DNA of 64,000 nt from Simplicispira suum (GTDB lineage Bacteria; Pseudomonadota; Gammaproteobacteria; Burkholderiales; Burkholderiaceae_C): assembly GCF_003008595.1 (NCBI RefSeq), contig NZ_CP027669.1:1302001-1366000 (forward strand). Reading direction: 5' to 3'. A program made the position numbers and the translations under genes. The notes under the pieces were generated by a model. That model had not been told where the DNA came from and ran no database searches. It was given only the letters and a program-made list of their open reading frames with translations. Each line of letters starts with the position of its first letter. Positions within the stretch are counted from its first letter, which is position 1. Positions 18,328 through 52,399 of this stretch are shown piece by piece.

Positions 18328-18441
18328 ACCATCGCATGCCGCTGCACACGCCCAATCGCCTCACGACATGACTTTCGGCACTGTTGGGCGGTCTCCTTCC
18401 GACTTATTCTGAGTGAAACGCCACACCCAAGGATTCGAGAC

Positions 18442-18912
18442 ATGCTGCCCAACCCGTACCAAATGAAAGCTGAGCGCGTATTCGGAAATCGAGACACTCA
18501 CCAAGCCCAACCGAGCAGCCTGAGATCGCGCTTGGCGATCTCATTGGCGGTTTTTGCCAGTTTTTCGTTAGTGGGCAACACGCATGCCAAAGACCCTGGC
18601 ACCCCCACGGCGGAACACCTGGGCCTTACACCGGCCTATCTGCAGGGCGATTGGTGCCAGACCTACATCCAATTCCCCAAGGAACGCAGCGAAGAAAACA
18701 CGCCCTACCGGTGGGATCCCGATGGCACCTACGCCACCAGGGGCTCGAAACATGGCGACATGAAAGCGGGCTACTTTTACCTCTACAAGCCTGAGGGAAA
18801 AATCAAGCTCGCCACCATCGCAGGCTTCTTCAAAGTGAAGTCGGTCGAGCCAAACGAATTTGTCTTGCTCGTTTTTGGCGATATGCATTTTCAAAGAGGC
18901 CCTTGCAAATGA
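18442..18912 (+). CDS. Exported protein of unknown function
   Basis: Unrecognised protein of 156 aa. AAGGA lies about 9 nt before the ATG; a second ATG is seven codons in. After a basic N region (to about residue 31) a hydrophobic stretch LAISLAVFASFSLVG ends near NTHAKDP, consistent with a Sec signal peptide, so the mature part of about 105 residues would be periplasmic. It contains two cysteines (in DWCQTY and at the penultimate residue), which could form one disulfide. The stop overlaps the next start by ATGA. Confidence 0.65.
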   Translation: MLPNPYQMKAERVFGNRDTHQAQPSSLRSRLAISLAVFASFSLVGNTHAKDPGTPTAEHLGLTPAYLQGDWCQTYIQFPKERSEENTPYRWDPDGTYATRGSKHGDMKAGYFYLYKPEGKIKLATIAGFFKVKSVEPNEFVLLVFGDMHFQRGPCK

Positions 18913-19517
18913 CCCATTGCCTACACCGAACCGCAGCTTGTGCAGCCCCTACATCCGATCGCCCACCGCGCTGGGCCAAACCAATCGGTGTACTGGCCAT
19001 GGCCCTGTGGTCGCCCATGCTGGCACATTCGGCCACGCCAGCAGAAATGATGAAAAAGGTTCGAGCGCACGCAGCCACCCTAGAAGGGCCTTGCCCGTTT
19101 TTTGATGCGGTCGTAGTGGAGAAGACTTTCCCGAACAGCAGCAACGAAGCGGTGTTCAAACGCCGCGACAAACCGTTTCCCTCCTGCACCTACCTCTGGA
19201 ACGCGAAACACATGAACGGCGTCAAGATGGCCGGGCGCACGGTGATGGTTCCTTCCGAGGGGCGCTTGACATTGACCAAAGTAGCCACCCGCAACGAAGC
19301 CCAGGATTGGGAGCGGGTCTTGACAGGCTACAAAAATCAGCAGCTGACCCCAGTGCCCGAGTTGGGCCCATACGCCGTTTGGTCAGCCCAGCGCCGCCAG
19401 CTGTCATGGATCGCCAAAGGCCACATTTTTCATGTGGCGGTGGAGGACGATGACCAGCCCGCCGACCAACAAAAGAACGCCATGGTGGTGGCGGCCGAGT
19501 TGACCCGAACGCACTGA
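18909..19517 (+). CDS. Exported protein of unknown function
   Basis: Unrecognised protein of 202 aa whose start overlaps the previous stop. A hydrophobic segment (IGVLAMALWSPMLAHSA) after a basic region suggests export with cleavage near HSA-TPAEM. The mature part has two cysteines (GPCPFF and PSCTYLW) and no recognised domain. Translational coupling with the preceding exported protein suggests the two act together in the periplasm. The downstream MITE-like inverted repeat separates it from a third, oppositely oriented exported protein. Confidence 0.6.
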   Translation: MTHCLHRTAACAAPTSDRPPRWAKPIGVLAMALWSPMLAHSATPAEMMKKVRAHAATLEGPCPFFDAVVVEKTFPNSSNEAVFKRRDKPFPSCTYLWNAKHMNGVKMAGRTVMVPSEGRLTLTKVATRNEAQDWERVLTGYKNQQLTPVPELGPYAVWSAQRRQLSWIAKGHIFHVAVEDDDQPADQQKNAMVVAAELTRTH

Positions 19518-19524
19518 CCCTTCA

Positions 19525-19631
19525 TTCCATTTCCAAATCATTTGTGACGCGAAGATGAGCCGCAGACATTGCCGTAGCAAGGCAAGGCGAAGTCGAAGTT
19601 GACAACGTCGCGGATGATTTAGAAATGGAAT
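19525..19631. repeat. 107-bp MITE-like inverted-repeat element
   Basis: The left end ATTCCATTTCCAAATCAT is mirrored by the right end ATGATTTAGAAATGGAAT, with imperfect pairing continuing about 10 bp further in (gtgacg/cgtcgc). The 50-bp centre has no reading frame. It lies between two convergent genes, so it may act as a bidirectional terminator, but its terminal inverted repeats and size also suit a small non-autonomous mobile element. Confidence 0.6.
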
Positions 19632-19638
19632 CAGTGCA

Positions 19639-20184
19639 TCAGTCCTCGCAAGCCTGCCCGCTCCCCTTGTTGGTGCATACCGACTGACGCACCCACAGCG
19701 TCAGCCCATCTGCCGCGTTGACCAAGGCGGTGACTTCGGTCGCGCGATAGCCCTCGCCCGACGACACCCGGTCGGCCCAGATGGTGAACTCATCCGGGTC
19801 AGAGTCCTCGTCCACTTCACCGGCTACGCAGCGCGACAACCGCTCACGCAGTGCCTTGTCTATCTTGAACACCGCCGGGAATTTGCAGCTGTAGCCCGTT
19901 TGCCGCAACTGCATCTTCGGCTCGTCCAGATGCACCGCCACCACGCTGCAGGTCTTGGCGCCTGTCATGGTTTTTTTGGCCTGGTAGGTTTTCCAGCCCT
20001 TGACGGCGGGGTTGGAAGGCGCAGCAAGCGCACCTTTGTGGGCAGCAAATCCCTTCTGCGCGTCGCTCACGGCCGCCTTCAACTCCTGGCAGGCAAACAT
20101 CTCATTCGCCATGGCTACCGTCGGCACGGCCAGCCAAGTAGCAACCACTGTGGCCACCAAACATAAGATTGGTCGATCAAGCAT
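19639..20184 (-). CDS. Exported cysteine-containing protein of unknown function
   Basis: Unrecognised protein of 181 aa with a clear signal peptide (hydrophobic ILCLVATVVATWLAVPTVAMA, cleaved near AMA-NEM). The mature part has six cysteines (ACQE, KTCS, YSCK, SRCV, SVCT, QACE), an even number compatible with three disulfides. GGAAGAG precedes the start. It is convergent with the two exported proteins at 18.4-19.5 kb, and all three are of the same general kind (small, secreted, no known domain). Confidence 0.65.
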   Translation of the reverse strand: MLDRPILCLVATVVATWLAVPTVAMANEMFACQELKAAVSDAQKGFAAHKGALAAPSNPAVKGWKTYQAKKTMTGAKTCSVVAVHLDEPKMQLRQTGYSCKFPAVFKIDKALRERLSRCVAGEVDEDSDPDEFTIWADRVSSGEGYRATEVTALVNAADGLTLWVRQSVCTNKGSGQACED

Positions 20185-20270
20185 GCATCTCTTCCGGTCT
20201 AAGTAACCTCATCAAAGCCTGAGCCTAGCGCTTTGCGTGGCGCACAACCAGTGCACAAAGTCATGCTTGG

Positions 20271-20396
20271 AAGATGCGCGTGGACGCAACCAATACTTGG
20301 CCCGGCGAGAGGTTGCGCGAATGGGCCCGAACCATTGCCATGCACGCCGTTGTAGTGGCGCGTAGGAATGCGCTGGCTCAAACGCTGGGGCTTTGA
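20271..20396 (+). pseudogene. Relic of a ubiD 3' end
   Basis: Translated in frame this stretch gives 41 residues ending in a stop. They match the last 41 residues of the intact UbiD at 14283-15767 at 30 of 41 positions; shared runs include DATN, WPGE, LREW, RTIAM and the terminal ALAQTLGL. No similarity is visible upstream of position 20271. This is therefore the remaining tail of a second, deleted ubiD-type gene. Its end overlaps, antisense, the last codons of the cytochrome b-reductase fusion. Confidence 0.85.
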
Positions 20397-22324
20397 ACTC
20401 CCGACTCTGTCGCCTCGGCCGCTATCGGCCGCGCCGCTGGAACGAACGCGTCGGAGAAGCATGCCCCCTCGGCCAGACCTTGGGCCAGGAAAGCTGGAAT
20501 CGCCGTTTCCACCATCCGCACCGAGCCGCAGAGGTAGACCTCGTGACCACTGAGGTCAGGGAAATCGGCCAGCATGGCATCGTGCACCAGACCGATGCGC
20601 CCCTCCCAGCCGTCGCCCGACTCGGGTTCTGACACCACCGGCACCACACTGAAGTTGGGGTACTGGCGCTGCCACTCTTCGCACAGCGCCAGCATGTACA
20701 AATCCTTGGGGTGGCGCACACCCCAGTACAAGCGCATCGGCCGTGTCAGGCCGCGGGCAAAGGCGTCCAGCACAATGCTCTTGATCGGAGCGAAGCCTGT
20801 TGCGCCGGCGATGAACAGGATGGGCTGGGTGCCGTCGCGCAGCGTGAACTGGCCGCGCGGCCCTTCAAATGTGATCGTGTCACCCACCTGCATGCCCTCG
20901 AACACATGGGTGGTAAAGCGTCCGCCCGGAACCAGACGCACGTGCAGCTCGATCAGCGCGTTGTCCTGAGGAGAGTTGGCAAACGAGAAAGCTCGGCGCT
21001 CGCCGTCCTCCAACACGATGTCGATGTACTGGCCGGCTTCGAAATCCAGACGCGAAGCACCGGGCAGTTCGAGTCGCAAACGCATCACGTCGTCGGCCAG
21101 ATGCTCCATGTTCACCACGCGCGCCTGGTACTGCGGCACCTCGGTTGCACTTGCTCCGGTGAAGCCATCGACGGCAATCACCACGTCGCCGTTGGGCACA
21201 GCGCAGCACATCAGCGCCAGACCGCGCGCCAGCTGCGCATCAGAGAGGGCAGACTTCTGGTACGGGCGCTGCTCCACGGTGCCCTGTTCCATGCTGCACA
21301 GGCAAAGGCCGCAGGCACCGTTGCGGCATTCATAGGGGAGCGCCAGACCTGCGCGCAGCCCCGCGTCGAGGAGCGTCTCACCCGGTCGCAACGTGAACTC
21401 GGCGGCCGTGGCGCCTTCGCCGCGCACGGTAGCGTGCAACGTGCCTTGCGCCGCGCGCCGGCCTTGCGGCCACAAAGGCAGCAGGAGCAACACGAGCGTG
21501 ATGCCAGACACCAGCGCCCAGACCTGGCCGAGTGGCCACTGGCTGAGCAGCGGATAGAGCGCAAGCAAGAACCAGTCGAGTTGCACGCTCATGACCGCCT
21601 TGGCCAGATTGGCTGCGCCGCCTTGACTGAGCACTGGCGCTGCCAAGGACATCACGAGCAACGTGCTTACCAAGCCAATCACCACCGGGCGCGGCGGCGT
21701 GGTACGTGCCTTGGGCACACGCTGCACGTGGATCCACATCAGCAGCAGCACCACCAGCGGCAGGCCGATGTGCAGGAAGGAGAGCAGTGAGAAGAAGCGG
21801 TCGCTGACGCTGTCGGCATACACAAAGTTGCGCATCAGCGTGCCGCTGAACGGCGGCAACCAGTCGAGCCACTCAAAGCTGGTGACGGTGACGTACTGCG
21901 CCAGGGCGTCCCAGGGCAGCATGTAGCCGTTGACGCCCGAGGCATAGACGAGCCAGATCAGCGCCACGCCGGTAACCCATGAAAACCAGCGGAAGCCATG
22001 GAACAGGTTGAACGCGAAATAGCGCAGCATGTGCAGCATCATGGTGAGCACCATGGCGTCGGACGCGTAGCGATGCACGCTGCGCAGGATGCCGCCAAAC
22101 CACCATTGGCCGTGCGTCAGCGACTGCACTGAGTCGTAAGCGCCGGTTACGCCGGTTTCAAAGAAGGCATAGAGGTAAAGGCCGCTGCCACTGACAATCC
22201 AGAACAGAAAGAAGGTGATGGAGCCAAGGTGGTACAGGGGGTTGATGCGGTCGCCAAAAGCACGATTGAACAAATCCTCCACGCGCATGAAAAGCCACTG
22301 CAGGGCCGACTGAATCGCTTTCAT
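20378..22324 (-). CDS. Cytochrome b - [2Fe-2S] ferredoxin - FAD/NAD(P) reductase fusion
   Basis: Three-part redox protein of 648 aa. Residues 1-280 form a cytochrome b N-terminal domain with the two bis-histidine pairs spaced 14 apart (H84/H98 and H185/H199), so both b hemes should be present. Residues about 295-390 are a plant-type ferredoxin with the ligand set C-x4-C-x2-C (ECRNGACGLC) plus a later Cys in LMCCA. The last 250 residues are a ferredoxin-reductase-type FAD domain (RAFSFANSP) and NAD(P) domain (GATGFAPIKS, YLCGSVRMVE). Such a chain could pass electrons between NAD(P)H, quinone and the adjacent heme-copper protein. Its last codons run into an antisense ubiD relic. It is the last gene of the nine-gene operon. 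Confidence 0.88.
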   Translation of the reverse strand: MKAIQSALQWLFMRVEDLFNRAFGDRINPLYHLGSITFFLFWIVSGSGLYLYAFFETGVTGAYDSVQSLTHGQWWFGGILRSVHRYASDAMVLTMMLHMLRYFAFNLFHGFRWFSWVTGVALIWLVYASGVNGYMLPWDALAQYVTVTSFEWLDWLPPFSGTLMRNFVYADSVSDRFFSLLSFLHIGLPLVVLLLMWIHVQRVPKARTTPPRPVVIGLVSTLLVMSLAAPVLSQGGAANLAKAVMSVQLDWFLLALYPLLSQWPLGQVWALVSGITLVLLLLPLWPQGRRAAQGTLHATVRGEGATAAEFTLRPGETLLDAGLRAGLALPYECRNGACGLCLCSMEQGTVEQRPYQKSALSDAQLARGLALMCCAVPNGDVVIAVDGFTGASATEVPQYQARVVNMEHLADDVMRLRLELPGASRLDFEAGQYIDIVLEDGERRAFSFANSPQDNALIELHVRLVPGGRFTTHVFEGMQVGDTITFEGPRGQFTLRDGTQPILFIAGATGFAPIKSIVLDAFARGLTRPMRLYWGVRHPKDLYMLALCEEWQRQYPNFSVVPVVSEPESGDGWEGRIGLVHDAMLADFPDLSGHEVYLCGSVRMVETAIPAFLAQGLAEGACFSDAFVPAARPIAAEATESGVQSPSV

Positions 22325-23784
22325 TACTGAACCACCATTTCATTGGCGCCGGGAGTTCCCGCGCTCTCTTTTGCCCGCATTGCCCGGACGGTCACGACAA
22401 TAAACAACACACCACCAATGATGGCCACCAGTCCGCCAAACCCCATCAATCCCATGCCAGCAATTTCGGCATTGGAGCGCAGCACCTGCTCAGCGCCCGC
22501 CACCTTGCGCTGCACGCCGTACCCACCGGACCACACCAAACCGACGATGTGCATCAACTGCCCCAGGCCATACACCCAGGGCTGCGCCACCGCCAACCGG
22601 CCCTTTGGCGCTGCATAGCCGAGCGCAGGAAGCAAGTGGTAAACCAGACCCATCAGCGCCAACGTGACGCCGACGATGCAGCCGTGGTAATGCGCAGGGA
22701 TGCGCACGTTGCTGCCGCTGATGAAGATGCCGATCACACCACCCGCGCCAAACAGCAAGATCGACGCCAGCAAAGCAGCGCGCAACGGATGCTGAGTGGC
22801 TTGCGCCAGCGGAAGTCGGTACAGCGCCACCACCACCGCCAGCGCCACCGGAACGATGGCCGTACCGCCGCCGGCACGCATCGCCCAGGTCAGCATGGAG
22901 CGGTGCTCTACCGAGCTGATGTCATGGGCAAGATAAGCCCAGGGTGTGACAAAAACGCCCGCTAGAGCCAGGGCGAACATCAGTACCGTCACACGCGGGC
23001 TCAGGCGCATCCGTGCGCCGCAGGCGCTGGCCAGCCACAACCATCCAACCAGCATCAACAGTGTCCAAGTGAACTGCAGCACGTGTCCGCCGCCCCAGAA
23101 CAAGATTTCGTAGTACGCCTTGCCAGTCAGCGACATGGGCAGTTGCACAAAAGACCAGGCAAATGCCAACAGCGCTATCGCTGTGGCGACTGCTGCGGCG
23201 TTCAGGCCAAAGCCCAACGCGCCGCTTCCGCCAAACGAAAGGCCGAGCCGTGGCGCCGCAACCAAGCTGCGCAACGCCAGGACACCCACACCCAGGCCAA
23301 ACACCACCAGACCGCCAAGAAACAGCGGCGAGTTCAGGACCGGGATGTAGTTGGCCATGATGGGCTCGCCCGCATTCAGGAAAGGCGCAGCAGCCATCGC
23401 CAGTGTGCCGGCGGCGCAGATCCACAGCGCACTCCAGCCCCAGCGCAGACCGCGTTCGCCCCCCTGCACGCTCCACAGCAATCCACCCAATGCCATGAAC
23501 CACACGAGAACGGAAAGATCGACGTGCAGCACCAGCGCGACATGGAAAAAATCTGCTGCCGGCAACAGGCGATTGACGCCCGGTGTGCGCGAAAGCACCA
23601 GCAGAACGGAAAACAGGCCCGAACCCACCAAGGCCAGCAGGCCCAGCCAGAGCCAGCCACGCGCAAGGGCGCGGCGCGCGTCTTGCGGCACTGCCAGCGA
23701 ATAGTCGGCGGCCGCCTGCGCAGGCGGTGGACGGTTCGCCGACAGGGAGGCGGGGTTCAGCGAAGAAGGCGCGATGGCACTCAT
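22324..23784 (-). CDS. Divergent heme-copper oxidase-superfamily subunit I
   Basis: Membrane protein of 486 aa with about 12 helices, related to subunit I of heme-copper oxidases and NO reductases. Candidate heme ligands are H87 (LHVDLSVLVW) and the H-x-H pair H365/H367 (IPAHYHG). A candidate CuB/FeB ligand is H234 in WGGGHVLQF; the residue four on, Tyr in A/B-type oxidases, is Phe238. The usual helix-VII HH pair reads H287-D288 (AYLAHDISSVEH). Loss of Tyr and of one His makes ordinary O2-reducing chemistry doubtful and suggests an NO-reductase-like or novel activity. It overlaps neighbours on both sides (TAATG and ATGA). Confidence 0.8.
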   Translation of the reverse strand: MSAIAPSSLNPASLSANRPPPAQAAADYSLAVPQDARRALARGWLWLGLLALVGSGLFSVLLVLSRTPGVNRLLPAADFFHVALVLHVDLSVLVWFMALGGLLWSVQGGERGLRWGWSALWICAAGTLAMAAAPFLNAGEPIMANYIPVLNSPLFLGGLVVFGLGVGVLALRSLVAAPRLGLSFGGSGALGFGLNAAAVATAIALLAFAWSFVQLPMSLTGKAYYEILFWGGGHVLQFTWTLLMLVGWLWLASACGARMRLSPRVTVLMFALALAGVFVTPWAYLAHDISSVEHRSMLTWAMRAGGGTAIVPVALAVVVALYRLPLAQATQHPLRAALLASILLFGAGGVIGIFISGSNVRIPAHYHGCIVGVTLALMGLVYHLLPALGYAAPKGRLAVAQPWVYGLGQLMHIVGLVWSGGYGVQRKVAGAEQVLRSNAEIAGMGLMGFGGLVAIIGGVLFIVVTVRAMRAKESAGTPGANEMVVQ

Positions 23785-24284
23785 AGCAGCACGATCTCTC
23801 CGCGCTGGGAGTCGAAGTCAATCACCAACACCTGGGCCGGCACCAATTCGACTGTGGCATCGTGCTGGTAGGTAAAGCCGCTGGTGGCCGTGGTGTCACG
23901 CATGCGCACGGTAATCCGGTGCTTGCCTGCCGGCACCTCCAGTCGCTTGTACACGGTGGAGGCTCCATCACGCGAGAGGCCTGAGGGCGCAGCGACGTGC
24001 TGGTAAGCCGGCACGCCATCGATGTCCAGCTCCACCGCCACAGGAGCGCGCTCGCGCTCGCACTTGAGCGGCGCGCGCATGTTGGGCGCCAGTTTCGCCA
24101 GTTCTTCGGCGGTGTAAGGCCGGCACTCAGCGACGCGCTGGCCGTGGTGCACGAAACTCAGCTTGATCAATGCCTGATCCGGCGCCAGTGGCGCATACGC
24201 CGGCCAGTGTGAAAAAGTGCCGACGAAGACAGCAAAACTGCCATACAGCAGCGCCTGTCCCGCCAGATCGAAAACACGCTTCAT
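23781..24284 (-). CDS. Membrane-anchored protein of unknown function in the heme-copper operon
   Basis: Unrecognised protein of 167 aa with one N-terminal hydrophobic segment (ALLYGSFAVFVGTFS), then a mostly beta-strand domain facing the periplasm. Residues include several His and only two Cys (ECRPYT and LKCERE), and no CuA or c-heme motif (no CxxCH). Its size, topology and place, overlapping the divergent subunit I gene by ATGA, fit a small subunit II-like partner for that protein. This is inference from position; sequence similarity to subunit II is not evident. Confidence 0.7.
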   Translation of the reverse strand: MKRVFDLAGQALLYGSFAVFVGTFSHWPAYAPLAPDQALIKLSFVHHGQRVAECRPYTAEELAKLAPNMRAPLKCERERAPVAVELDIDGVPAYQHVAAPSGLSRDGASTVYKRLEVPAGKHRITVRMRDTTATSGFTYQHDATVELVPAQVLVIDFDSQRGEIVLL

Positions 24285-25954
24285 GCAGTGGACTCCGGAT
24301 GTTCAAAAGATTTTGCCGTACGCGAACGCAGAGCTTGAAAGGAGGTGGTCAAGACCGCTTCGTCGCCGGGGTCGACGGCCACCAATGACCAGCGTTCTGC
24401 CGGTACGCTGGCGCGCAGCCGCGGCTCCCGCACGCCCTGCAGGCGCTCGCGCGTCCAGCGCTCGCCCAGACGGAAGGCGCAGCCTCCCTCGCGGCAGCTT
24501 GCAACCAGCACACCATCGGCACCGGCGCGCAACGCGTATTCAATAAAAGACGGCGGCAACAGCCCGGTGCACACCAGTGGCAAGGTGAGCACATCGCTCC
24601 CAGACAGTGCGCCCAGGTCCGCCCCCTCGGCACAGCCGAACACCACGTAGCGACGGGGTCCGGGGAGCGCGGCCAGGCCGCTTAGCATCTGCCGGCGCAG
24701 GTCGTCAATGGGCCACTGAGGCATGTCGATGCCGGTATGCAGCACCTCAGCGCTGCGAAACGGAGTGGACGAGGGACAGGAGCCCACACAGATGCCGCAG
24801 CTCGCACACAGGTCACTTCGTACCTGCGCCAGCTCCATGCCAACGCGGCCGCTGGGGTGCGGCACCATGGTGATGGCAGCATAGGGGCAATCTTCCACGC
24901 AGCGGCGACAACCACTGCAATGGTCCGGGTCCACCTCGGCCACAAACTGTGTCAACGCGGTCGGTCGCCAGTGCGTGTGCGAAGTGGCAGGCGGGGCCGC
25001 TCCAACTTCAGCCGGATTGGCCGTGGCAGCGCCCGGCGCCACCGGCTGCGCGCGAACACGCCGCACGCCAAGCCAGGGCAGGGCCAGCAGCAGTGCAACA
25101 GAGAGCCCAAGCAGGCCCCACACGATCGCTGCGGAAGTCGCGGCGGTCAGGGGATGGATGAACAAAAGCAGCCAGTCGTAGTTCAGGACTGCGGGAACTG
25201 TGGCCAGATCGGCCGGTCCCTGACTGCGCACCGGCAAGAGCGCGGCGAGCATCAGCAAAGTCACGCCGGTACCGATTGCCAGCGCGCGCGCGGGAAACAC
25301 TTGGGCACGGCTCAGTCGCTGGACATGGAACCACAGACCAAACACCAGCATCAGCGGGACCCCCACGTGCACAAATACGAACAAGGAAAACAGGCGATCA
25401 TTCAATTGCGTGCCGCCCAGAAAATTGCGTGCCAAGGGCGAGGCAAGGCCGGGCAGCGCATCGAGCCATTCGGCGGTCGCGGTGGCAGAAAATTGCCCCA
25501 GACGATCCCAGTTGAGCCAAAAACCGCCGATGGCACTGACGAACAACAGCAACAGCAAGGGCACCCCCGTCAGCCACGATGCGGCGCGAAAACTGCGAAA
25601 ACGCCCCAGCATCCATTCGCGCACGACATGGGCAAGTACCACCAATACCATGGCGTCTGCGGCGTAGCGGTGCAATCCACGAAGCAAACTGCCCCAGCGC
25701 CGCGGCTCACGCGAGAGCATTTCAATGGATTGGTAGGCGCCGCTGGCCGAGGTATCGAGCACCGCGTACAGCACGGCGCCACTGACAACCAACAGCCACA
25801 AAAGCAGAAAAGCCAAAGCCCCCAGCTGCTTGAGTGGATTGCCGCCCGCACCGACCAACGCGTCGAAACCATGTTCGAGCGCGCGCCACCAACGCGTTGC
25901 AATTCGCGGCGGCGCAGGTGCGGGAGCCCGGCGGGTCAAGACAGCCACAGACAC
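24281..25954 (-). CDS. Cytochrome b - 2[4Fe-4S] ferredoxin - MvhD/FlpD fusion
   Basis: Fusion protein of 557 aa starting at GTG. Residues 1-290 are a cytochrome b N-terminal domain with intact heme ligands H95/H109 and H196/H210. Two 4Fe-4S motifs follow (about 355-410): CSGCRRCVEDCP and CASCGICVGSCP. The last about 130 residues match the hydrogenase delta subunit/FlpD family (PF02662), with cysteines in VFGCAEG, LVCTGL, ASCREGGC. In methanogens MvhD links hydrogenase to heterodisulfide reductase; here its fusion to a quinone-type cytochrome b is unusual. It is likely to carry electrons between a soluble iron-sulfur or flavin donor and the membrane. It overlaps the next gene by ATGA. Confidence 0.87.
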   Translation of the reverse strand: MSVAVLTRRAPAPAPPRIATRWWRALEHGFDALVGAGGNPLKQLGALAFLLLWLLVVSGAVLYAVLDTSASGAYQSIEMLSREPRRWGSLLRGLHRYAADAMVLVVLAHVVREWMLGRFRSFRAASWLTGVPLLLLLFVSAIGGFWLNWDRLGQFSATATAEWLDALPGLASPLARNFLGGTQLNDRLFSLFVFVHVGVPLMLVFGLWFHVQRLSRAQVFPARALAIGTGVTLLMLAALLPVRSQGPADLATVPAVLNYDWLLLFIHPLTAATSAAIVWGLLGLSVALLLALPWLGVRRVRAQPVAPGAATANPAEVGAAPPATSHTHWRPTALTQFVAEVDPDHCSGCRRCVEDCPYAAITMVPHPSGRVGMELAQVRSDLCASCGICVGSCPSSTPFRSAEVLHTGIDMPQWPIDDLRRQMLSGLAALPGPRRYVVFGCAEGADLGALSGSDVLTLPLVCTGLLPPSFIEYALRAGADGVLVASCREGGCAFRLGERWTRERLQGVREPRLRASVPAERWSLVAVDPGDEAVLTTSFQALRSRTAKSFEHPESTA

Positions 25955-25960
25955 CCCGGC

Positions 25961-26818
25961 TCAGCGGCCGCGCAGATGTTGGCGCTGACGAGCGCGCGGC
26001 CGCGTCGCGCGCCACTCTCTAAAAAAGAAGACCATCATCACGACAAAAAACGTCACTCCGCCTGCAATCTGAATCGGCAGGGTGTAGTCCACGCGGTAGC
26101 TGCCGGTTTTCGGGTCGTACACCGTGCATACCAAACGCACACGTTCAAACAAACCTTCCAGCACCCGTTCATGGGTCACTGGCGAGCCCGCCAGCAACAA
26201 GCGCAGCGGCTCGCCCAGATCGGCGGCGTTCAGTTGCTCACCATAAATCTGGCGCACGATCCGGCCCTGCGAATCCACCAAACTCAGTTGCAACACGTGG
26301 TCAAAACCGGCCGGTGTAGGTTCATACAGAAAGCCAAAATCGCGTGTCAAGGCGGGCACATCGGCGCCGCGTGGGCTGAGAAATTCCCAGTTGTCTGAAT
26401 TGATATGAAACTGGGCGGCAAACGCCTTGAGCGCACCAGGGGAGTCCTCCGGCTGGTTAAAGCCGATGCTCACCACGTTGAACTGTCCTGGCCCGACACT
26501 TTTTTGCAGCGCTTCCACCGCTATCTGTAACGCGCGCGTAGTTCCGGGGCAGATCTGAAAGCACCCGGTATAGATGAAGCTCACGAGCAAGGGTTTGCCT
26601 CGGTAGGTTGACAAAGCCACCGTGCGACCCGAACGGTCACGAAACAGGTGCTCGCCAAGTTCCCGACCCACCGCATCCTGGCTGGCTCGCAAGGCGAGGG
26701 TCTTGTCGAGGCCGGGCCTGCTTTGTGCCTCGCTCGCATCGCTCGCTGCAGCAGGCAGCGCACCCGCCCCGATCGAACACGCCAACAGCAGCGCAGCAAA
26801 GGGGCGAAAGCAGAACAT
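25961..26818 (-). CDS. SCO1/SenC-family copper chaperone with C-terminal membrane anchor
   Basis: SCO-type protein of 285 aa. The ATG at 26818 gives a signal peptide (FAALLLACSIGAGALPAAA); a TTG two codons earlier is possible. The thioredoxin-like domain has the copper-binding CxxxC in YTGCFQICPG and the distal His in FDHVLQLS. A hydrophobic helix near the C terminus (VTFFVVMMVFFF) is not usual for SCO proteins, which are normally anchored at the N terminus. It probably loads copper into the CuA centre of the subunit II in the same operon, 12 bp after ctaB. Confidence 0.88.
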   Translation of the reverse strand: MFCFRPFAALLLACSIGAGALPAAASDASEAQSRPGLDKTLALRASQDAVGRELGEHLFRDRSGRTVALSTYRGKPLLVSFIYTGCFQICPGTTRALQIAVEALQKSVGPGQFNVVSIGFNQPEDSPGALKAFAAQFHINSDNWEFLSPRGADVPALTRDFGFLYEPTPAGFDHVLQLSLVDSQGRIVRQIYGEQLNAADLGEPLRLLLAGSPVTHERVLEGLFERVRLVCTVYDPKTGSYRVDYTLPIQIAGGVTFFVVMMVFFFREWRATRPRARQRQHLRGR

Positions 26819-26830
26819 GGACAAGCTCGC

Positions 26831-27730
26831 TTAGCGGACCAAGCCGTCCACGCAAGCCGCCACCAACAGGGTGCTCAGTTGTACCAAGGAGGCAAAAAAG
26901 GCCGACATAGCGTGCTGGCGGGTCACTTCGCGCGACAGCACCCAGGCCTTGTGCACGAAATGCAGGCCGCCCCCCAAGGCGCCGACGAGATACACCGGGC
27001 CCGCACCCCAGAATGCCGGCAACAACGAAGCCACCAGCAATGCCACGGTACTTCCGAAGACGATGCGCGCGGCACGCTCGTTGCCCACCACGACTGGAAG
27101 CATGGGCACGCCTGCCTGCGCATAGTCGGCGCGGTTGGCAATGGCCAGGGCCCAGAAGTGCGGTGGCGTCCACAGGAAGAGCACCAAGGCAAGCAGCATG
27201 GGCAACGGCCCGAGCGCCGGATCGACTGCGGCCGCGCCTGCCAGAACTGCGAAGCTGCCGGCCAGACCGCCGATGACGATGTTCATAGGACTGCGGCGCT
27301 TGAGCCACACGGTGTACACAAAGGCGTAGAAGAATGCGCCCAGGAACACATACACCGCTGCCGCACCGTTGAGCACCAGCCACGCTGCCGCGACGGCAGC
27401 CGCAAGCATGGCCCCCATCAGCACCAGCCAGGCCGGGTGGTGCGGCAGTGCACCAGTAACAAAGGCGCGCCGCCGCGTGCGCGCCATCAGCTGGTCGCTC
27501 TGGTGTTCAACATACTGGTTGAAGGCTCCCGCGCTGGCCGAAGCCACCAGCACCGACAGCGCCAGCACCAGTACCTCGATCCAGCTGGGTGCCGGCCCAG
27601 GTGTCACCACCATGCCCACCAATGCAGTGACCATGATGAGCGAACCAATACGCAGCTTGAACAGCGAGATGACGTCGCGCGTGCGCTGCACAGCCAGGCT
27701 GCGCGCAGGGTGGAGCGTGTCGGTGTGCAT
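26831..27730 (-). CDS. ctaB: Protoheme IX farnesyltransferase (heme O synthase)
   Basis: UbiA-family prenyltransferase of 299 aa with about nine helices. The start at MHTDTLH is preceded by GGAAGCG. The prenyl-diphosphate-binding motif reads NQYVEHQSDQLMARTRRR, matching the CtaB consensus N-x3-D-x3-D-x2-M-x-R-T with Glu in place of the first Asp. It converts heme B to heme O, implying that one of the operon's heme-copper subunits carries heme O or A. It starts 14 bp after the subunit I stop. Confidence 0.93.
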   Translation of the reverse strand: MHTDTLHPARSLAVQRTRDVISLFKLRIGSLIMVTALVGMVVTPGPAPSWIEVLVLALSVLVASASAGAFNQYVEHQSDQLMARTRRRAFVTGALPHHPAWLVLMGAMLAAAVAAAWLVLNGAAAVYVFLGAFFYAFVYTVWLKRRSPMNIVIGGLAGSFAVLAGAAAVDPALGPLPMLLALVLFLWTPPHFWALAIANRADYAQAGVPMLPVVVGNERAARIVFGSTVALLVASLLPAFWGAGPVYLVGALGGGLHFVHKAWVLSREVTRQHAMSAFFASLVQLSTLLVAACVDGLVR

Positions 27731-27744
27731 AGTGCGCTTCCGCT

Positions 27745-29472
27745 TTAGGACATGCCCCACAGCTGTGCGAGGTACTTCCAGTTAATGAAGTAATACAGCA
27801 CGAAGGCGAGCAGGAACACCATGGCCAGCACGAAACTTCCAGGCGCTACCAAGCCGGCCGACCCGTAAGTCTGCGCAGCCGCTGTCCGTGCAGTGGGTGG
27901 AATCGGCGTGAAGCGCGGGCTGACAGCGCCTTGATCCAACTTCTTGCCCCACAACAAAGAGCCGACCGTGATGTAGATGTACAGTCCGCCGCCAGCAATC
28001 GCAGCGAGGCCACCGATACCGACAAGACCCATCATCAGGTAGGCTGCGCCGGGCCATTCATACGCCAGTGCCGCGCCGCTGAAAGCCATGTCCCAGTGCC
28101 TGCGCGAAACGCCCAGGGTACCGGCCCCCATCATCACGAGACAGAAGAAGTACATCGAGAAACCGAAGAGGTAGGGCTGGATCTTGGCCAGACCGGGAGA
28201 AATGGTTTCCCGCTTGAACAGCACCGGAATCAAGAAGTACGTCAGCGCCATGAAGGTCAGCGTAGTACCCACCACCACGGTCGCATGGAAGTGGCCAGGC
28301 ACATAGATGGTGTTGTGGATGATCAGGTTGAGCTGCTCGGTACCCATCATCACGCCCGAGATACCGCCGAGGAAACCAAAACCGACGATGGAGATGAAAA
28401 CCCCCGAGAAGGTAGGATTGCCCCAAGGCGCCTTGCGCAACCACTCGAACAGGCCCTTGTTGTAACCCTTGGCGCGCTGCGCCACTTCCATGGCACCCGG
28501 AACCGTGAGGCCGTGAATCATCGAAGCCAGCACAGCGAAGTACATGAAGTAGCTGGTGTTAACCACTTTCCACTCGGTACTGACGCCAGGGTCGGCCAAC
28601 AGGTGGTGCGCACTGGCAAGCTGGAGAAACAGGATGTAGAGCAGGAAGGCGCCGCGACTGACGCGCTCGGACATCGGCTTGGCGCCAAAGGCGACTGCAG
28701 CCACCAGATACCAGATGGAAATGTGCGCCGCCACGTTGATCTGCTGCGACGAGTGACCAAAGGCCCACCAAATGGTCCGGTAGATCAGCGGATCGACGTG
28801 ACTGATGAGACCGAGAGCCAGCAAATACGTTGGGATCAGGATGATCGCTCCCGAGACGATGGTGAACACCGCAATGATGGCCGCCACGATAGCGCCGAAT
28901 GTCACCAGCGGAACCGAGCCTTGGTAGGTCTTGTCGCGCTTGGCAACCACCAGCGTTCCAAAGAAGACGAAGCAAGCGATCAACGCGCCGACAGCAAAAA
29001 GGATCAAGCCCAGGTAGAACCAGGGCGTGGCCATCATCGGCACGTAGGACGTCATCATCACGCTAGAGCCGCCGCGGAACACATCGATGTTGTTCATCAC
29101 GGCGCCGACCAGCATCAGCGCGTAGGCCAACCAAGCCATCTTGGGCGTGGCAATCCGACAGCGCAGCAGCGTCGACGCACAGAAGTACAGCACTGCGACT
29201 TCAAAGAAAATCATCCAGAAGATGAGCATATTGATGCCGTGCGCGGTGAGCACCAAGTAGAAAGTGTCTGCGGCCAGCCAGTGAACGGCGGGCCAGCGTG
29301 TCAGCACCACGCCAATGGCGAGGATGCCGCCCACCAGCAGCGCGACGACAGCAGTCACCGCGTTGAAGATCATCAGGCGTTCGGCATTGCGTTCGAACTG
29401 CAGGCCCGAACGCGGGCAGGTACGGTAGGTGGTGGCGTTGCCTGAGGCAAGCGCAGCAGAAGTTGCGGCCAT
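27745..29472 (-). CDS. Cytochrome c oxidase/NO reductase-like subunit I without the cross-linking Tyr
   Basis: B-type heme-copper subunit I of 575 aa. All six metal ligands are visible: H78 (LTAHGIN, low-spin heme), H240 (WWAFGHSS, CuB), H289-H290 (SAHHLLADPG, CuB), H394 and H396 (VPGHFHA, hemes). The residue that should be the His-cross-linked Tyr (H-x3-Y, position 244) is Gln in GHSSQQ. This Tyr is needed for O2 cleavage in A- and B-type oxidases, and its loss is characteristic of non-canonical NO reductases within the superfamily. Neighbouring CuA subunit and SenC gene resemble the norSY-senC arrangement described from ammonia oxidisers. Function therefore proposed as NO reductase; oxidase activity not excluded. 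Confidence 0.85.
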   Translation of the reverse strand: MAATSAALASGNATTYRTCPRSGLQFERNAERLMIFNAVTAVVALLVGGILAIGVVLTRWPAVHWLAADTFYLVLTAHGINMLIFWMIFFEVAVLYFCASTLLRCRIATPKMAWLAYALMLVGAVMNNIDVFRGGSSVMMTSYVPMMATPWFYLGLILFAVGALIACFVFFGTLVVAKRDKTYQGSVPLVTFGAIVAAIIAVFTIVSGAIILIPTYLLALGLISHVDPLIYRTIWWAFGHSSQQINVAAHISIWYLVAAVAFGAKPMSERVSRGAFLLYILFLQLASAHHLLADPGVSTEWKVVNTSYFMYFAVLASMIHGLTVPGAMEVAQRAKGYNKGLFEWLRKAPWGNPTFSGVFISIVGFGFLGGISGVMMGTEQLNLIIHNTIYVPGHFHATVVVGTTLTFMALTYFLIPVLFKRETISPGLAKIQPYLFGFSMYFFCLVMMGAGTLGVSRRHWDMAFSGAALAYEWPGAAYLMMGLVGIGGLAAIAGGGLYIYITVGSLLWGKKLDQGAVSPRFTPIPPTARTAAAQTYGSAGLVAPGSFVLAMVFLLAFVLYYFINWKYLAQLWGMS

Positions 29473-29487
29473 TGTTATGTGCTCCTG

Positions 29488-30027
29488 CTATTTGACGTAG
29501 AGGCGTCCCACCATGGTGTGGTGGTTGATGCCGCAAAACTCGTTACAGACGATAGAGAACTGACCCGACTGGTTGGGCGTAATCTTCATCACGTGCTCAT
29601 ATCCAGGCACCACCTGGATGTTGATGTTGGTCGGCTGCAGAGAGAAGCCGTGGTTGTAATCCATAGAAGTCATGTGCAGCTTGTAGGTTTTGTCTTTTTC
29701 AAGCTCGAGAATGGGCCACCAGGACCACAAACGTCCGATGAGGTAGACGTCGCTGCCCTCAGGTGGGTGCACCACAGGGATTTTTTCGTCGGTCTCGGTG
29801 CGTACGGTGTACTTGTCGACCATGGCCTGCGTCTTGGCAGAGAACATCTCTGGCGTGGTCTTGTAGGTTTCCGTGGAGAGGTTTTGCTTGCCGTAGATGT
29901 GCCAGCCGACCATCATGAAGAACATGACCATGCACCAAGCGAAGGCGATGGCGATCCATAGGCCTTCGACACGGTCCAGCGGGTGCTTCCACCAAAGCCG
30001 TTCGGCGGGGGGGAGAATAGCGCTCAT
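29488..30027 (-). CDS. CuA-containing subunit II of the heme-copper enzyme
   Basis: Subunit II of 179 aa with a single N-terminal TM (about residues 22-42) and a periplasmic cupredoxin domain. The CuA ligand set is complete: His in MDYNHGFSL and then CNEFCGINHHTM, with two Cys, bridging Glu, His and Met in the correct spacing. Having only one TM, it resembles B-type (ba3) subunit II. It should accept electrons from a c-type cytochrome or cupredoxin and pass them to the adjacent subunit I. GAGGAG precedes the start; it lies 15 bp upstream of the subunit I gene. Confidence 0.92.
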   Translation of the reverse strand: MSAILPPAERLWWKHPLDRVEGLWIAIAFAWCMVMFFMMVGWHIYGKQNLSTETYKTTPEMFSAKTQAMVDKYTVRTETDEKIPVVHPPEGSDVYLIGRLWSWWPILELEKDKTYKLHMTSMDYNHGFSLQPTNINIQVVPGYEHVMKITPNQSGQFSIVCNEFCGINHHTMVGRLYVK

Positions 30028-30041
30028 GTGCGGGCTCCTCT

Positions 30042-30197
30042 TTACTTGGCCAAGGGAATGGTCAAGATCTCAATCACCCCCCACAGTGAATACACCACCA
30101 TCGGGATCATCACCCCGATAAACAGCAGCAGGAAAGGGTTGTCCAGCAATTGCTGAATCATCGGAACCTTCTCGTTCTCGTCGTCATGGTGTTCCAT
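30042..30197 (-). CDS. 51-aa single-TM protein, first gene of the heme-copper operon
   Basis: Small protein of 51 residues with a strong GAGGAG ribosome site. The N terminus is charged (MEHHDDENEKVP); the rest is one hydrophobic helix (about 21-46) ending PLAK. It lies 14 bp upstream of the CuA subunit gene. Small single-helix subunits occur in B-type oxidases (for example subunit IIa of ba3), so it may be a stabilising subunit. No family was recognised. Confidence 0.75.
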   Translation of the reverse strand: MEHHDDENEKVPMIQQLLDNPFLLLFIGVMIPMVVYSLWGVIEILTIPLAK

Positions 30198-30259
30198 AGG
30201 GGTATCTCCTCGGTTACCTAAAGATGCATTCGATTCTCGGGTTTAGCCTCATCGTAAGC

Positions 30260-30273
30260 TTGATCTACGACAA
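30260..30273. promoter_or_regulatory. FNR/DNR-like box in front of the heme-copper operon
   Basis: TTGAT-CTAC-GACAA matches eight of ten positions of the TTGAT-N4-ATCAA box used by FNR and NO-sensing DNR/NNR regulators. It lies 63 bp upstream of the first start codon, between the operon and the divergent ctaA-like gene. The right half-site is weak. Confidence 0.35.
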
Positions 30274-30341
30274 GGTCCACCGCCAGCAGCGCTAGGGGAA
30301 ACCACTAACGTTGCGTCCTTTCCACTCTCTCGGTCCGCAGA

Positions 30342-31333
30342 ATGGCCGCTTTTCTCGTTGAGCGCAAGATGCATTCCCCTATCGCGTCGATGACTTTGCC
30401 CCAGCGCAGCAGCCTGCTGCGGCGTGCCGCCTGGCTGTGTGCTGCGCTGGTTCTGATAGTGATCAGCCTGAGCGCGTTTCTGCGCCAATCGAATGCGGGC
30501 CTGGGTTGCACACCCTGGCCTGCCTGCCATGCCCGCGCTGCAGCGGGCGAGGCGCCGCAGGAGGCGGCCGGGCCGACCCAGCGCGGGGCCCGCGCCGTGC
30601 ACCGGGTGACCGCTTCGTCTTTGCTTGTGCTCCTGCTGGGCATGGCGGCGCTGGCTTGGATGCCCACGCCCCGCGCGGGCGTGGAAGGCCGTCAGATCCT
30701 GCTTGCGCTGGGCCTGGTGCTGTTCCTGGCGCTGCTGGGGCCGTTCACCTCCGGATCACGCGTACCTGCGGTGACGCTGGGCAATCTCCTGGGGGCCTGT
30801 TGTTGTTCGCCGTCTGTGTGCGCCTTGCGCTGCCCCCTGCAGCGCGCTCGGCGCGAGCCGGCCCGCCGCTGGGCCGCTGGGCTTGGACTGCGTTCGCGCT
30901 GCTTCTGATGCAGATGGTGCTAGGCGGGCTGATCAGTGCAGGCTACGCCGGTTTGAGCTGTCCGCAACTGCTTGGCTGCCATCCAGGAGCGCAGGGCTGG
31001 CTGGCGCTCAGTCCCTGGCAAGTGCCCGGCGCAGGCGCAGGGCTGCCCCAATACGCTGGGGGCGTGGGCGTGCAATGGCTGCACCGTCTGGGTACGCTGG
31101 CGGTGCTGGCAGCGGTGATTGCGCTGGCGCTGGCCGCCTGGCGCGCCGGTCGGCGCAAGTCGGCCACGGTGCTGGTGACGCTTGTCGCGCTGCAGACCGA
31201 ACTGGGGATGGTGCTGGCGCTGGGCGCTCTGCCCCTGGGCGCTGCACTGGCGCACAACCTGCTCGCTGCGCTGTTGCTGGCCACCGTGGCGACGCTGCTG
31301 CCGCGCGCCCGCGTACTGTCACCTGGGTTGTGA
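30342..31333 (+). pseudogene. CtaA/COX15-like heme A synthase, frameshifted
   Basis: Two overlapping frames together make one CtaA/COX15-like protein of about 330 aa. The first frame runs through SNAGLGCTPWPACHA and HRVTASS to TLGNLLG; the second continues GLLLFAVCV through SCPQLLGCHPG, QWLHRLG and ALAHNLLAAL to the stop. The break is at the G5 run at 30791-30795; a sixth G would restore NLLGGLLLF. Conserved His residues survive on both sides. It may be a sequencing error, a recent pseudogene or a slippage site. Divergent from the heme-copper operon, it would supply heme A. The start could also be at 30369. Confidence 0.8.
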
Positions 31334-31364
31334 CACGCGCGCCGGGCGCTGAGCACAATGGCCC

Positions 31365-32657
31365 ATGGACTTCGCCCCTTCAGCCCGAGCGCAGGAACTG
31401 CTGCTGCGCATGGATGCCTTCGTACAGCGCTATCTTCTGCCGCACAACGCTGCGTGGCATGCGGCGGCGCAGGCAGGCAGCTATCCACCGCCGTTTCTCG
31501 CTGATCTGAAGGCCCTGGCGCGCGAGGAAGGCCTGTGGAACCTGTTCTTGCCCACCCTGCGCGAGGATGAGCCGGGAACCCGTCTTTCCAACCTGGACTA
31601 CGCACCGCTGGCCGAGTGCATGGGGCGCCTGCCCTGGGCGGCCGAGGTCTTCAATTGCAACGCTCCCGACACCGGAAACATCGAGTTGCTGCATCGCTTC
31701 GCGTCGGCGGAGCAGCGCGGCGAATGGCTCGAACCATTGCTGGACGGGCGCATCCGCTCGGCCTTTGCCATGAGCGAACCCGATGTGGCCTCGTCGGACC
31801 CGACGAATCTGCAGACCACCGTGCGGCGCGACGGCACCGAGCTGGAACTGAGTGGCAGAAAATGGTTCATCACCGGCGCGGCGCACCCCGATTGCCGGCT
31901 GCTGATCGTGATGTGCCGAAACGCAGGCGAAGATCCGGAGCCCGGCAGCATCCACCAGCGCCACAGCATGGTGCTGGTGCCGCTGGAGGCACCGGGTGTG
32001 CAGGTGCTGCGCAACATTCCCGTGCTGCATCACCACGCCCCCGAAGGCCACTGCGAAATCCTGCTGCAAGGCGTGCGTGTGCCCGAGAGCTCCTTGCTGG
32101 GCGAATGGGGCGCGGGCTTTGCGATGGCGCAAGCCCGGCTCGGGCCGGGCCGCGTGCACCACTGCATGCGCAGCATCGGCCAGTGCGAACTGGCGTTGCA
32201 ATTGGCGGCCGAGCGCACGCTGGAGCGCCAGATGTTTGGCCGCTACGAGTCGGATTTTTCCAACGTGCAGGACTGGCTGGCCGAGTCGCGCATCGAGATT
32301 GACCAGGCGCGTTTGCTGGTGCTGCGCACCGCCTGGCTGCTGGATCAGGGGAGCGCTGCAGACGCGGCGGGAACGCGCGCCCAGGTGGCAGCCATCAAGG
32401 TGGTGGCTGCACGCCTGCAGACGCGTGTGGTGAACCGGGCCATGCAGGTGTTTGGTGCCATGGGACTGTCCCCCGACACGCCGCTGGCCCAGTTCTGGAG
32501 CTGGGGCCGCGCCCTGCATCTGATGGACGGGCCGGACGAGGTGCACCTGCGCAGCGTGGCGCGGCATGAACTGGCCCAGGCGCGGGGCCGCATGGGCCAG
32601 AGCAGCGCCTGGTTCACGACGCCTGAGCAAATGCGGGCGCCCCCACGGGTACGCTAG
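31365..32657 (+). CDS. Acyl-CoA dehydrogenase family protein
   Basis: Flavoprotein of 430 aa. It has the acyl-CoA dehydrogenase FAD/substrate signature FAMSEPDVASSDPTNL, then the mid beta-domain GRKWFITGA, and a C-terminal helical domain with FGAMGLSPDTPLAQFW. The sequence type resembles the ACAD10/11-like group. The C-terminal tail has HLMDGPDEVHLRSVAR, close to the family's ligand loop. It would oxidise an acyl-CoA to the enoyl-CoA, passing electrons to ETF. It stands alone, with no other beta-oxidation gene nearby, so substrate cannot be deduced. Confidence 0.9.
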   Translation: MDFAPSARAQELLLRMDAFVQRYLLPHNAAWHAAAQAGSYPPPFLADLKALAREEGLWNLFLPTLREDEPGTRLSNLDYAPLAECMGRLPWAAEVFNCNAPDTGNIELLHRFASAEQRGEWLEPLLDGRIRSAFAMSEPDVASSDPTNLQTTVRRDGTELELSGRKWFITGAAHPDCRLLIVMCRNAGEDPEPGSIHQRHSMVLVPLEAPGVQVLRNIPVLHHHAPEGHCEILLQGVRVPESSLLGEWGAGFAMAQARLGPGRVHHCMRSIGQCELALQLAAERTLERQMFGRYESDFSNVQDWLAESRIEIDQARLLVLRTAWLLDQGSAADAAGTRAQVAAIKVVAARLQTRVVNRAMQVFGAMGLSPDTPLAQFWSWGRALHLMDGPDEVHLRSVARHELAQARGRMGQSSAWFTTPEQMRAPPRVR

Positions 32658-32661
32658 TCTG

Positions 32662-32728
32662 CTACGATATTTATAGCTTCTAACGCTTATTGGATAAGCG
32701 CTAGCGGCATAAACAATCTATATTTTCG
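32662..32728. repeat. Dispersed palindromic repeat, copy 6 (near-intact)
   Basis: The core CTAACGCTTA-TTGGA-TAAGCGCTAG has one mismatch in a 10-bp stem, flanked by 'tatagctt' and 'cggcataaac'. It lies between convergent acyl-CoA dehydrogenase and diguanylate cyclase genes and could end both transcripts. Confidence 0.7.
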
Positions 32729-32740
32729 CGGATTCGATGC

Positions 32741-33904: not shown

Positions 33905-34105
33905 GCCACGCCTTTCATAGGTTATGGGCAAGCACTGCGCTGCGGGTGTCGACACTGCGGCGCCATTCTAGGGACGCACGGTTTTGGTGCAAACGCAAGC
34001 CCCCACAGAGAGGTCGGCTTGGGCCGGCAGGAGATGGAGACCGCCGGGTCCAGGCCTGCCAGGCCGTCCCAAACCCATTCTGAGCCTGCGGTTGAAAACT
34101 GCGAC

Positions 34106-52010: not shown

Positions 52011-52399
52011 TGGCATCTCCTTATGTGAATTTTTTGTGACGCAAAAACAAGATAAGGGTGTGAACTATATTCGTAATTCAAAAAATCATCTGGCGCTCCA
52101 AACAACGCATTCGATCCGTTCTAGTCGGATTCGAACTCCTTCGCGTGCTGGTCACCTCCAGATTGAACGGCCCCTTTCGGCCCTTTTTCGTCGCATCGGT
52201 CTCGCATGTGAGATCTACTAAACTCCAAGTTTCTTCGCGAAAAAGAAGACGCTTAGGACTTTCTGATCCGGGTCGACAACAGCCGGTCATCATCTCGGAC
52301 TCAAACGTGACGTGTCGAACATGAACTGAAAAACACTATCGCTGCGCCCAGCATTCCGGGATTGGGGTCTGAGCACAAGTTTCGCTGCGCTGCATCGTG
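52011..52399. other. Non-coding right flank of the island
   Basis: AT-rich at first (52017-52090), holding the promoter region of the NTPase gene, then rising in G+C. A T-arm-like word GGATTCGAAC at about 52128 resembles a tRNA 3' end but does not fold as one. No other feature seen. Confidence 0.4.

What the first reader, a model, noticed from the sequence alone, without database searches (positions are those of the whole stretch)
20378..30197. Nine-gene operon with two unusual heme-copper proteins and two cytochrome b fusions
One minus-strand unit encodes a 51-aa membrane peptide, CuA subunit II, a Tyr-less subunit I, CtaB, SenC, a cytochrome b-ferredoxin-MvhD fusion, an unknown anchored protein, a second divergent subunit I, and a cytochrome b-ferredoxin-flavin reductase. 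Seen: tight overlaps and intact cofactor ligands. Known: each domain family. Inferred: a joint respiratory machine, probably for nitric oxide or another small oxidant, joining cytochrome c, quinone and NAD(P)H/ferredoxin pools. I do not know this combination as a described system.
Basis: partly seen in the sequence, partly recalled or inferred. Interest (0 to 1): 0.95.

Follow-up and report, generated by a model that had tools for sequence, protein, structure and literature searches.

The report
Nitric oxide reductase with copperless twin
Nine adjacent genes, kept together in dozens of related bacteria, encode a predicted nitric oxide reductase, a sister protein that lacks two of the three histidines that hold copper in this enzyme superfamily, and two predicted membrane cytochromes fused to electron-carrier domains that likely feed the system electrons, so a known step of nitrogen respiration would carry apparently unstudied parts.

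Summary
Gene C is an eNOR-type nitric oxide reductase subunit I (Gln, not Tyr, at the active site), B its CuA subunit II, A a small third subunit also found in Thermus. The host genome has NirS and NosZ, and no cNOR or qNOR was recognised among its five heme-copper genes. In 200 family genomes eNOR tracks NirS/NirK (22 of 23 against 44 of 177). An FNR/DNR-like box precedes A in most relatives. Main correction: H is no intact heme-copper enzyme. It lacks both tandem CuB histidines in all 108 readable sequences, yet keeps heme ligands and fold, and branches beside eNOR. F and I share one di-heme cytochrome b joined to two different redox heads; G travels with eNOR and F. A-B-C is the core across phyla; F-G, then H and I, look like additions. 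Best reading: a respiratory NO reductase with its own assembly genes and an inferred transmembrane electron-entry module; H's role is open. The eNOR part is known; I found no account of the rest, but the main eNOR paper was not held.

The parts
30042..30197 (-). A: 51-aa single-helix peptide, small conserved eNOR subunit (role inferred)
   Evidence: Found in 39 of 40 fetched eNOR regions counted (all but the lone-H region L055); 41% identical over 34 residues to the ORF at the same place in Thermus
29488..30027 (-). B: CuA subunit II
   Evidence: COX2; H126, C161, E163, C165, H169, M172 in 40 of 40 rows (CuA ligand set recalled)
27745..29472 (-). C: eNOR-type subunit I
   Evidence: COX1; H78, H240, Q244, H289, H290, H394, H396 in 40 of 40 rows; tree
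26831..27760 (-). D: heme o synthase CtaB
   Evidence: TIGR01473 over its cut-off
25961..26824 (-). E: SCO1/SenC, predicted CuA assembly factor
   Evidence: PF02630; CxxxC at residue 88
24281..25954 (-). F: di-heme cytochrome b (N-terminal half type) fused to 4Fe-4S ferredoxin and FlpD/MvhD domains
   Evidence: Pfam; H95, H109, H196, H210 and the cluster cysteines in at least 95% of 35 rows
23781..24284 (-). G: membrane-anchored beta-sandwich protein without known family, probable partner of the cytochrome b
   Evidence: In 23 of 24 eNOR genomes and 2 of 250 others of the class sample; model pLDDT 94.5; two copies in L141 and L145, after I and after F
22324..23784 (-). H: heme-copper oxidase homologue without the helix VII CuB histidines
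   Evidence: ligands; fold; tree
20378..22324 (-). I: di-heme cytochrome b fused to [2Fe-2S], FAD and NAD(P) domains
   Evidence: Pfam; H84, H98, H185, H199 in at least 95% of 23 rows, three of which are F-type proteins
30260..30273 (-). FNR/DNR-like box TTGTCGTAGATCAA, 2 mismatches, 76 bases upstream of A
   Evidence: At most 2 mismatches in 53 of 65 upstream regions, window included; in the window alone not significant
30324..31330 (+). Divergent ctaA (heme a synthase) relative, split by a frameshift
   Evidence: tblastn with the CtaA of L096 in two frames; that protein matches PF02628

Best explanation
The cluster encodes an eNOR-type enzyme predicted to reduce nitric oxide to nitrous oxide (A, B and C), with predicted cofactor-assembly genes (D, E and a divergent ctaA relative), two cytochrome b fusions that likely carry electrons from ferredoxin and NAD(P)H across the membrane (F with its probable partner G, and I), and a sister of the catalytic subunit that lacks two of three CuB ligands and so is unlikely to be a second reductase (H). 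Shown here: gene order, domains, ligands, conservation, co-occurrence with NirS/NirK, an FNR/DNR-like box in most relatives, tree position of H, and its fold as a predicted model. Inferred: NO as substrate (from the described eNOR family and the denitrification context); electrons reaching CuA from periplasmic cytochrome c; the direction of flow through F and I, from cytoplasmic heads through two b hemes to the quinone pool or the periplasmic face; G as their shared partner; H as a heme-only electron-transfer or ligand-binding partner.
For: eNOR signature Gln with CuA subunit II and grouping with Gln-bearing Thermus, Thermomicrobium and Defluviimonas proteins. NirS or NirK in 22 of 23 eNOR genomes against 44 of 177 others. 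NirS, NosZ and no recognised cNOR or qNOR among five COX1-family genes of the own genome. FNR/DNR-like box. Conserved nine-gene unit. G in 23 of 24 eNOR genomes and 2 of 250 others. Shared cytochrome b of F and I, 38% over 291 residues, with four conserved heme His each and different redox heads. H without CuB pair.
Against: No activity, expression or complex was tested. Thermus and Thermomicrobium eNOR loci show no F, G, H or I in the stretches seen, so these are not needed for every eNOR. H occurs in 11 of 250 class genomes without eNOR, in 4 of the 10 regions fetched near cox-type, ctaA/ctaB or SCO genes, and two eNOR genomes keep an H beside ctaB apart from eNOR (L207, L209): this favours an assembly role over electron transfer. 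H is absent from 5 of 24 eNOR genomes of the class, and F is missing between E and G in L120 and L121. The tree has long branches and no sNOR, bNOR, gNOR, nNOR or purified eNOR rows. The genome co-occurrence test does not correct for relatedness.
Confidence: 0.58

Rival explanations
1. F, G, H and I are biogenesis factors rather than respiratory parts: they would supply electrons to, or hold, the modified heme made by CtaB and CtaA before it enters subunit I, with H as a copper-free heme scaffold.
For: D, E and a divergent CtaA relative (36 of 61 loci with room) are assembly genes in the same unit. H relatives without eNOR lie near ctaA, ctaB, SCO or cox-type genes in 4 of 10 fetched regions. 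Heme A synthase is reported to need molecular oxygen (PMC9145763, passages), an awkward point for an FNR-like regulated enzyme, which extra reductant might meet.
Against: The redox heads of F and I are larger than such a role needs (inference). Thermomicrobium has a heme o synthase beside eNOR without F-G-H-I in the stretch seen. Six of the 10 eNOR-less H regions show no such neighbour.
Confidence: 0.25
2. The enzyme reduces oxygen, not nitric oxide.
For: Distant homology to ba3 oxidases; public names call relatives cbb3-type oxidase.
Against: The active-site Tyr of oxygen reductases is Gln in 40 of 40 rows; eNOR is biochemically characterised as a NO reductase (PMC11388526, passages); nitrite reductase co-occurrence.
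Confidence: 0.06
3. F and I run in reverse: membrane potential and quinol or cytochrome c electrons drive reduction of ferredoxin and NAD(P)+.
For: Transmembrane di-heme path and FlpD/ferredoxin head.
Against: No benefit specific to an NO reductase unit is evident (inference); nothing here tests direction.
Confidence: 0.08
4. H is a decaying copy without function.
For: Two of three CuB ligands are gone and the branch is long, 2.81 changes per column.
Against: 93 invariant columns among 41 sequences, the 40 relatives being 57-91% identical to the window; heme ligands kept in 107-108 of 108 readable rows; an H match in all 23 eNOR genomes of the family sample, broken in a few.
Confidence: 0.03

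Closest known systems
[quoted passage not shown]
   Same: Gln at the Tyr site, CuA-type subunit II upstream (PMC8756737, passages)
   Different: Here in one unit with F, G, H and I, which the Thermus and Thermomicrobium stretches lack
ba3-type (B-family) cytochrome oxidase
   Same: Closest solved relatives of C by sequence apart from 7deg and best Foldseek match of H; a small extra subunit like A (subunit IIa, recalled)
   Different: C has Gln for Tyr; H lacks the helix VII CuB His pair
cytochrome b of bc1/b6f complexes and ExtP of the selenite/tellurite operon
   Same: Four-His di-heme N-terminal half; ExtP is the best NCBIfam model for that part, below its cut-off
   Different: Fused to ferredoxin-FlpD or to Fer2-FAD-NAD heads; only N-terminal-half models match
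BenC-type reductases (Fer2-FAD-NAD)
   Same: Head of I (BenC model E 1.1e-62, below its cut-off); many class genomes have a match to the head alone
   Different: Here fused to a membrane cytochrome b
MvhD/FlpD and HdrA-type electron-transfer domains
   Same: C-terminal part of F (FlpD; HdrA2 model)
   Different: No hydrogenase or heterodisulfide reductase gene was seen in the unit; fused to cytochrome b

Membership tests
eNOR (for C with B) | Gln in place of the active-site Tyr, CuB and heme His kept | tested here: met
   40 of 40 rows
eNOR (for C with B) | Cupredoxin CuA subunit II encoded upstream | tested here: met
   COX2 domain and ligands in B
eNOR (for C with B) | Grouping with a purified eNOR in a tree | tested here: inconclusive
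   Groups with Gln-bearing Thermus and Thermomicrobium proteins, but no purified eNOR was included
eNOR (for C with B) | NO reductase activity | not testable with these tools
   Needs purified enzyme
sNOR, cNOR, qNOR, gNOR (for C) | Asn, Glu, Glu, Asp at the Tyr site (PMC8756737 table A4, passage) | tested here: not met
   Gln in 40 of 40 rows
Heme-copper superfamily fold (for H) | Subunit I fold with low-spin and high-spin heme His | tested here: met
Catalytic heme-copper oxidoreductase (for H) | Three-His CuB or FeB site | tested here: not met
   Only H234 kept; helix VII pair absent in 108 of 108 readable rows
bc-type cytochrome b (for F and I) | Four heme-ligating His on the N-terminal half | tested here: met
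   Conserved in at least 95% of 35 and 23 rows
bc1/b6f complex (for F and I) | C-terminal cytochrome b domain with Rieske and cytochrome c1/f genes | tested here: not met
   Only N-terminal-half models match F and I, and none of the nine proteins matches a Rieske or c1/f family

The most novel reading that the evidence does not exclude
H is a copper-free branch of the heme-copper superfamily that does chemistry of its own: cytochromes I and F pass NAD(P)H and ferredoxin electrons through their b hemes to H, whose lone high-spin heme traps and converts nitric oxide, a membrane counterpart of flavohemoglobin standing beside eNOR.
Probability: 0.12. Interest if true: 0.92.

Novelty: new variant of a known kind. 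Interest (0 to 1): 0.72.

Why it matters
NO reduction makes nitrous oxide, a strong greenhouse gas (general knowledge). This cluster would give Comamonadaceae and related denitrifiers an NO reductase that gene names present as an oxidase, with a possible direct line to cytoplasmic reductant that I found for no NOR in my searches. H offers a natural test of what the heme-copper fold can do without its copper.

Tried and rejected
Two catalytic heme-copper enzymes: rejected on the missing CuB histidines. sNOR, suggested by SenC next to a Tyr-less subunit I: rejected on Gln. A family for G: no Pfam or NCBIfam match and one weak PDB match below E 0.001 (8jkv_A, E 5.9e-4, TM 0.36), so no function is drawn from it. 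The FNR box from the window alone: 29 matches at up to 2 mismatches against 8.1 expected, spread over the window, so only the comparison across loci is used. H on plasmids: no match at E 1e-10. Rfam in 17000-34000: none. Sigma-70-type promoters in 19500-30700: none; nine terminator-like sites, 12.6 expected. Weaker plasmid hits of P0003: the four aligned (Halarchaeum, Haloarcula, Deinococcus, Methylobacterium) carry Tyr, so are not eNOR. CuB-less heme-copper proteins in print: two searches gave nothing to the point. MvhD, cytochrome b and denitrification: three archaeal papers, one looked at in passages.

Rows dropped or limited: one of 109 rows (xL207) is a wrong-frame ORF and is left out of the 108; xL196 is aberrant at H87 and R426; rows include genomes fetched twice under different ids, so they are not independent. 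In one search three of 23 rows under I are F-type proteins. In one search NirS means rows below E 1e-140 plus the partial G160 row, and NirK means over the cut-off; both were read from the listings. The list is capped. The confidence of the best reading was not changed by this.
Full report
Observation. Nine minus-strand ORFs, here called A to I, fill 20378-30197. Pfam gives B COX2, C COX1, D UbiA/CtaB, E SCO1-SenC, F Cytochrome_B + 4Fe-4S + FlpD, G nothing, H COX1, I Cytochrome_B + Fer2 + FAD + NAD. NCBIfam makes D a heme o synthase over its cut-off; for the cytochrome b parts of F and I the best NCBIfam model is ExtP, below its cut-off. Neighbours lie 15 bp apart or less, or overlap.

Is it a unit? 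Yes. In 200 genomes of the family, the own one included, H matched 24; one of these (G108) is a 60-residue match at E 2e-5. Of 20 regions fetched for an H match, 18 hold all nine genes, L051 lacks D and has I divergent, and L055 holds a lone H-like gene, 37-38% identical. Of the other 27, many start or end near the first or last gene found, so are cut by the contig; true gaps exist too (for example L154 without I, L120 and L121 without F). Some lineages have the order A-B-C-D-E-I-G-F-H.

The core is an eNOR. C has the three CuB His, the heme His and Gln244 where oxygen reductases have Tyr in 40 of 40 rows; B has the CuA ligand set in 40 of 40 (ligand roles recalled). Gln at this site was used to define eNOR, with a cupredoxin subunit II upstream (PMC8756737, passages). 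eNOR is biochemically characterised and B-family related (PMC11388526, passages). In a tree of 32 rows C groups with Gln-bearing Thermus, Thermomicrobium and Defluviimonas proteins. A has a relative at the same place in Thermus, 41% over 34 residues.

Context points to nitric oxide. eNOR is in 23 of the 200 family genomes, and all 23 had an H match, broken or partial in a few. NirS or NirK is in 22 of those 23 and in 44 of the other 177 (Fisher p 2.8e-11, relatedness not corrected). So no cNOR or qNOR was recognised, and C would be its only NO reductase. Flanks of 80 loci plus the window hold a cytochrome d1 (NirS-type) gene in 17 and a Crp/Fnr gene in 16 (three members of each scanned). Upstream of A, an FNR/DNR-like box with at most 1 mismatch is in 23 of 65 regions and with at most 2 in 53 of 65, against 1.4% and 9.5% of random windows of the same loci. 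The Thermus eNOR stretch has Rrf2-family and DUF542 genes just downstream.

Assembly genes. Besides D and E, a CtaA (heme a synthase) relative is divergent within 600 bp upstream of A in 36 of 61 loci with room for it (two members scanned). In the window its two halves match in different frames that meet between 30779 and 30875.

F, G and I. F and I share a cytochrome b, 38% over 291 residues, whose four heme His are conserved, joined to two different redox heads. In 274 class genomes G is in 23 of 24 with eNOR and in 2 of 250 without, these two being 73% and 77% complete. F and G are both seen in 15 of 20 class loci; the other five run off their contigs. In L141 and L145 G occurs twice, after I and after F, so it likely pairs with the cytochrome b. 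G models as an N-terminal helix and a beta-sandwich (pLDDT 94.5) without a clear PDB relative.

Layers. Thermus and Thermomicrobium show B, C and a short ORF at A's place, the latter with a heme o synthase (only Thermus A was compared). A Defluviimonas plasmid shows B to G with a short ORF at A's place, F and G confirmed, then a hemerythrin gene; no H or I is annotated in that stretch and its chromosome was not searched. The window's lineage shows A to I. So the cluster looks built in layers on a known enzyme (inference from these samples).

Mechanism. Predicted: cytochrome c gives electrons to CuA and the eNOR makes N2O; F and I bring electrons from ferredoxin and NAD(P)H through two b hemes toward the periplasmic face or the quinone pool; G supports the cytochrome b; H, without CuB, is a heme-only partner. 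My confidence is high for the eNOR part, about one in two for the electron-entry role, and lower for any one role of H.

Known or new. Ten paper searches and passages of eight papers gave no account of F-G-H-I with eNOR or of a CuB-less heme-copper family. Murali 2024 (PNAS), the main eNOR paper, was not held, and may show part of this. I file it as a new variant of a known kind.

Noticed in passing
window 30324-31330 (+): A divergent ctaA relative is split by a frameshift in this genome, while its nearest relative L096 has one open frame. Sequencing error or real loss cannot be told.
   Followed up: partly
L178:11983-13665 (Thermus thermophilus plasmid): This eNOR-type subunit I has Lys where the low-spin heme His of helix X is expected (GHFKAT for GHFHAT).
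   Followed up: no
L055:9299-11344: A lone H-like gene, also without the CuB pair, lies beside multiheme cytochrome c, NHL-repeat, ResB and cytochrome c assembly genes.
   Followed up: partly
L192, L198: H relatives in genomes without eNOR sit next to a sigma-70 family factor of 287-289 aa.
   Followed up: no
L177:17517-17921: A hemerythrin-family gene follows G in the Defluviimonas plasmid eNOR cluster.
   Followed up: no
L081:382-1209: A further cytochrome b half near an eNOR cluster lies in an 850-aa open frame, so may be another fusion.
   Followed up: no
window 50001-52000: A stretch of low GC (0.464 against 0.58-0.71 elsewhere in the table) overlaps an 826-aa minus-strand ORF at 49536-52016.
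   Followed up: no
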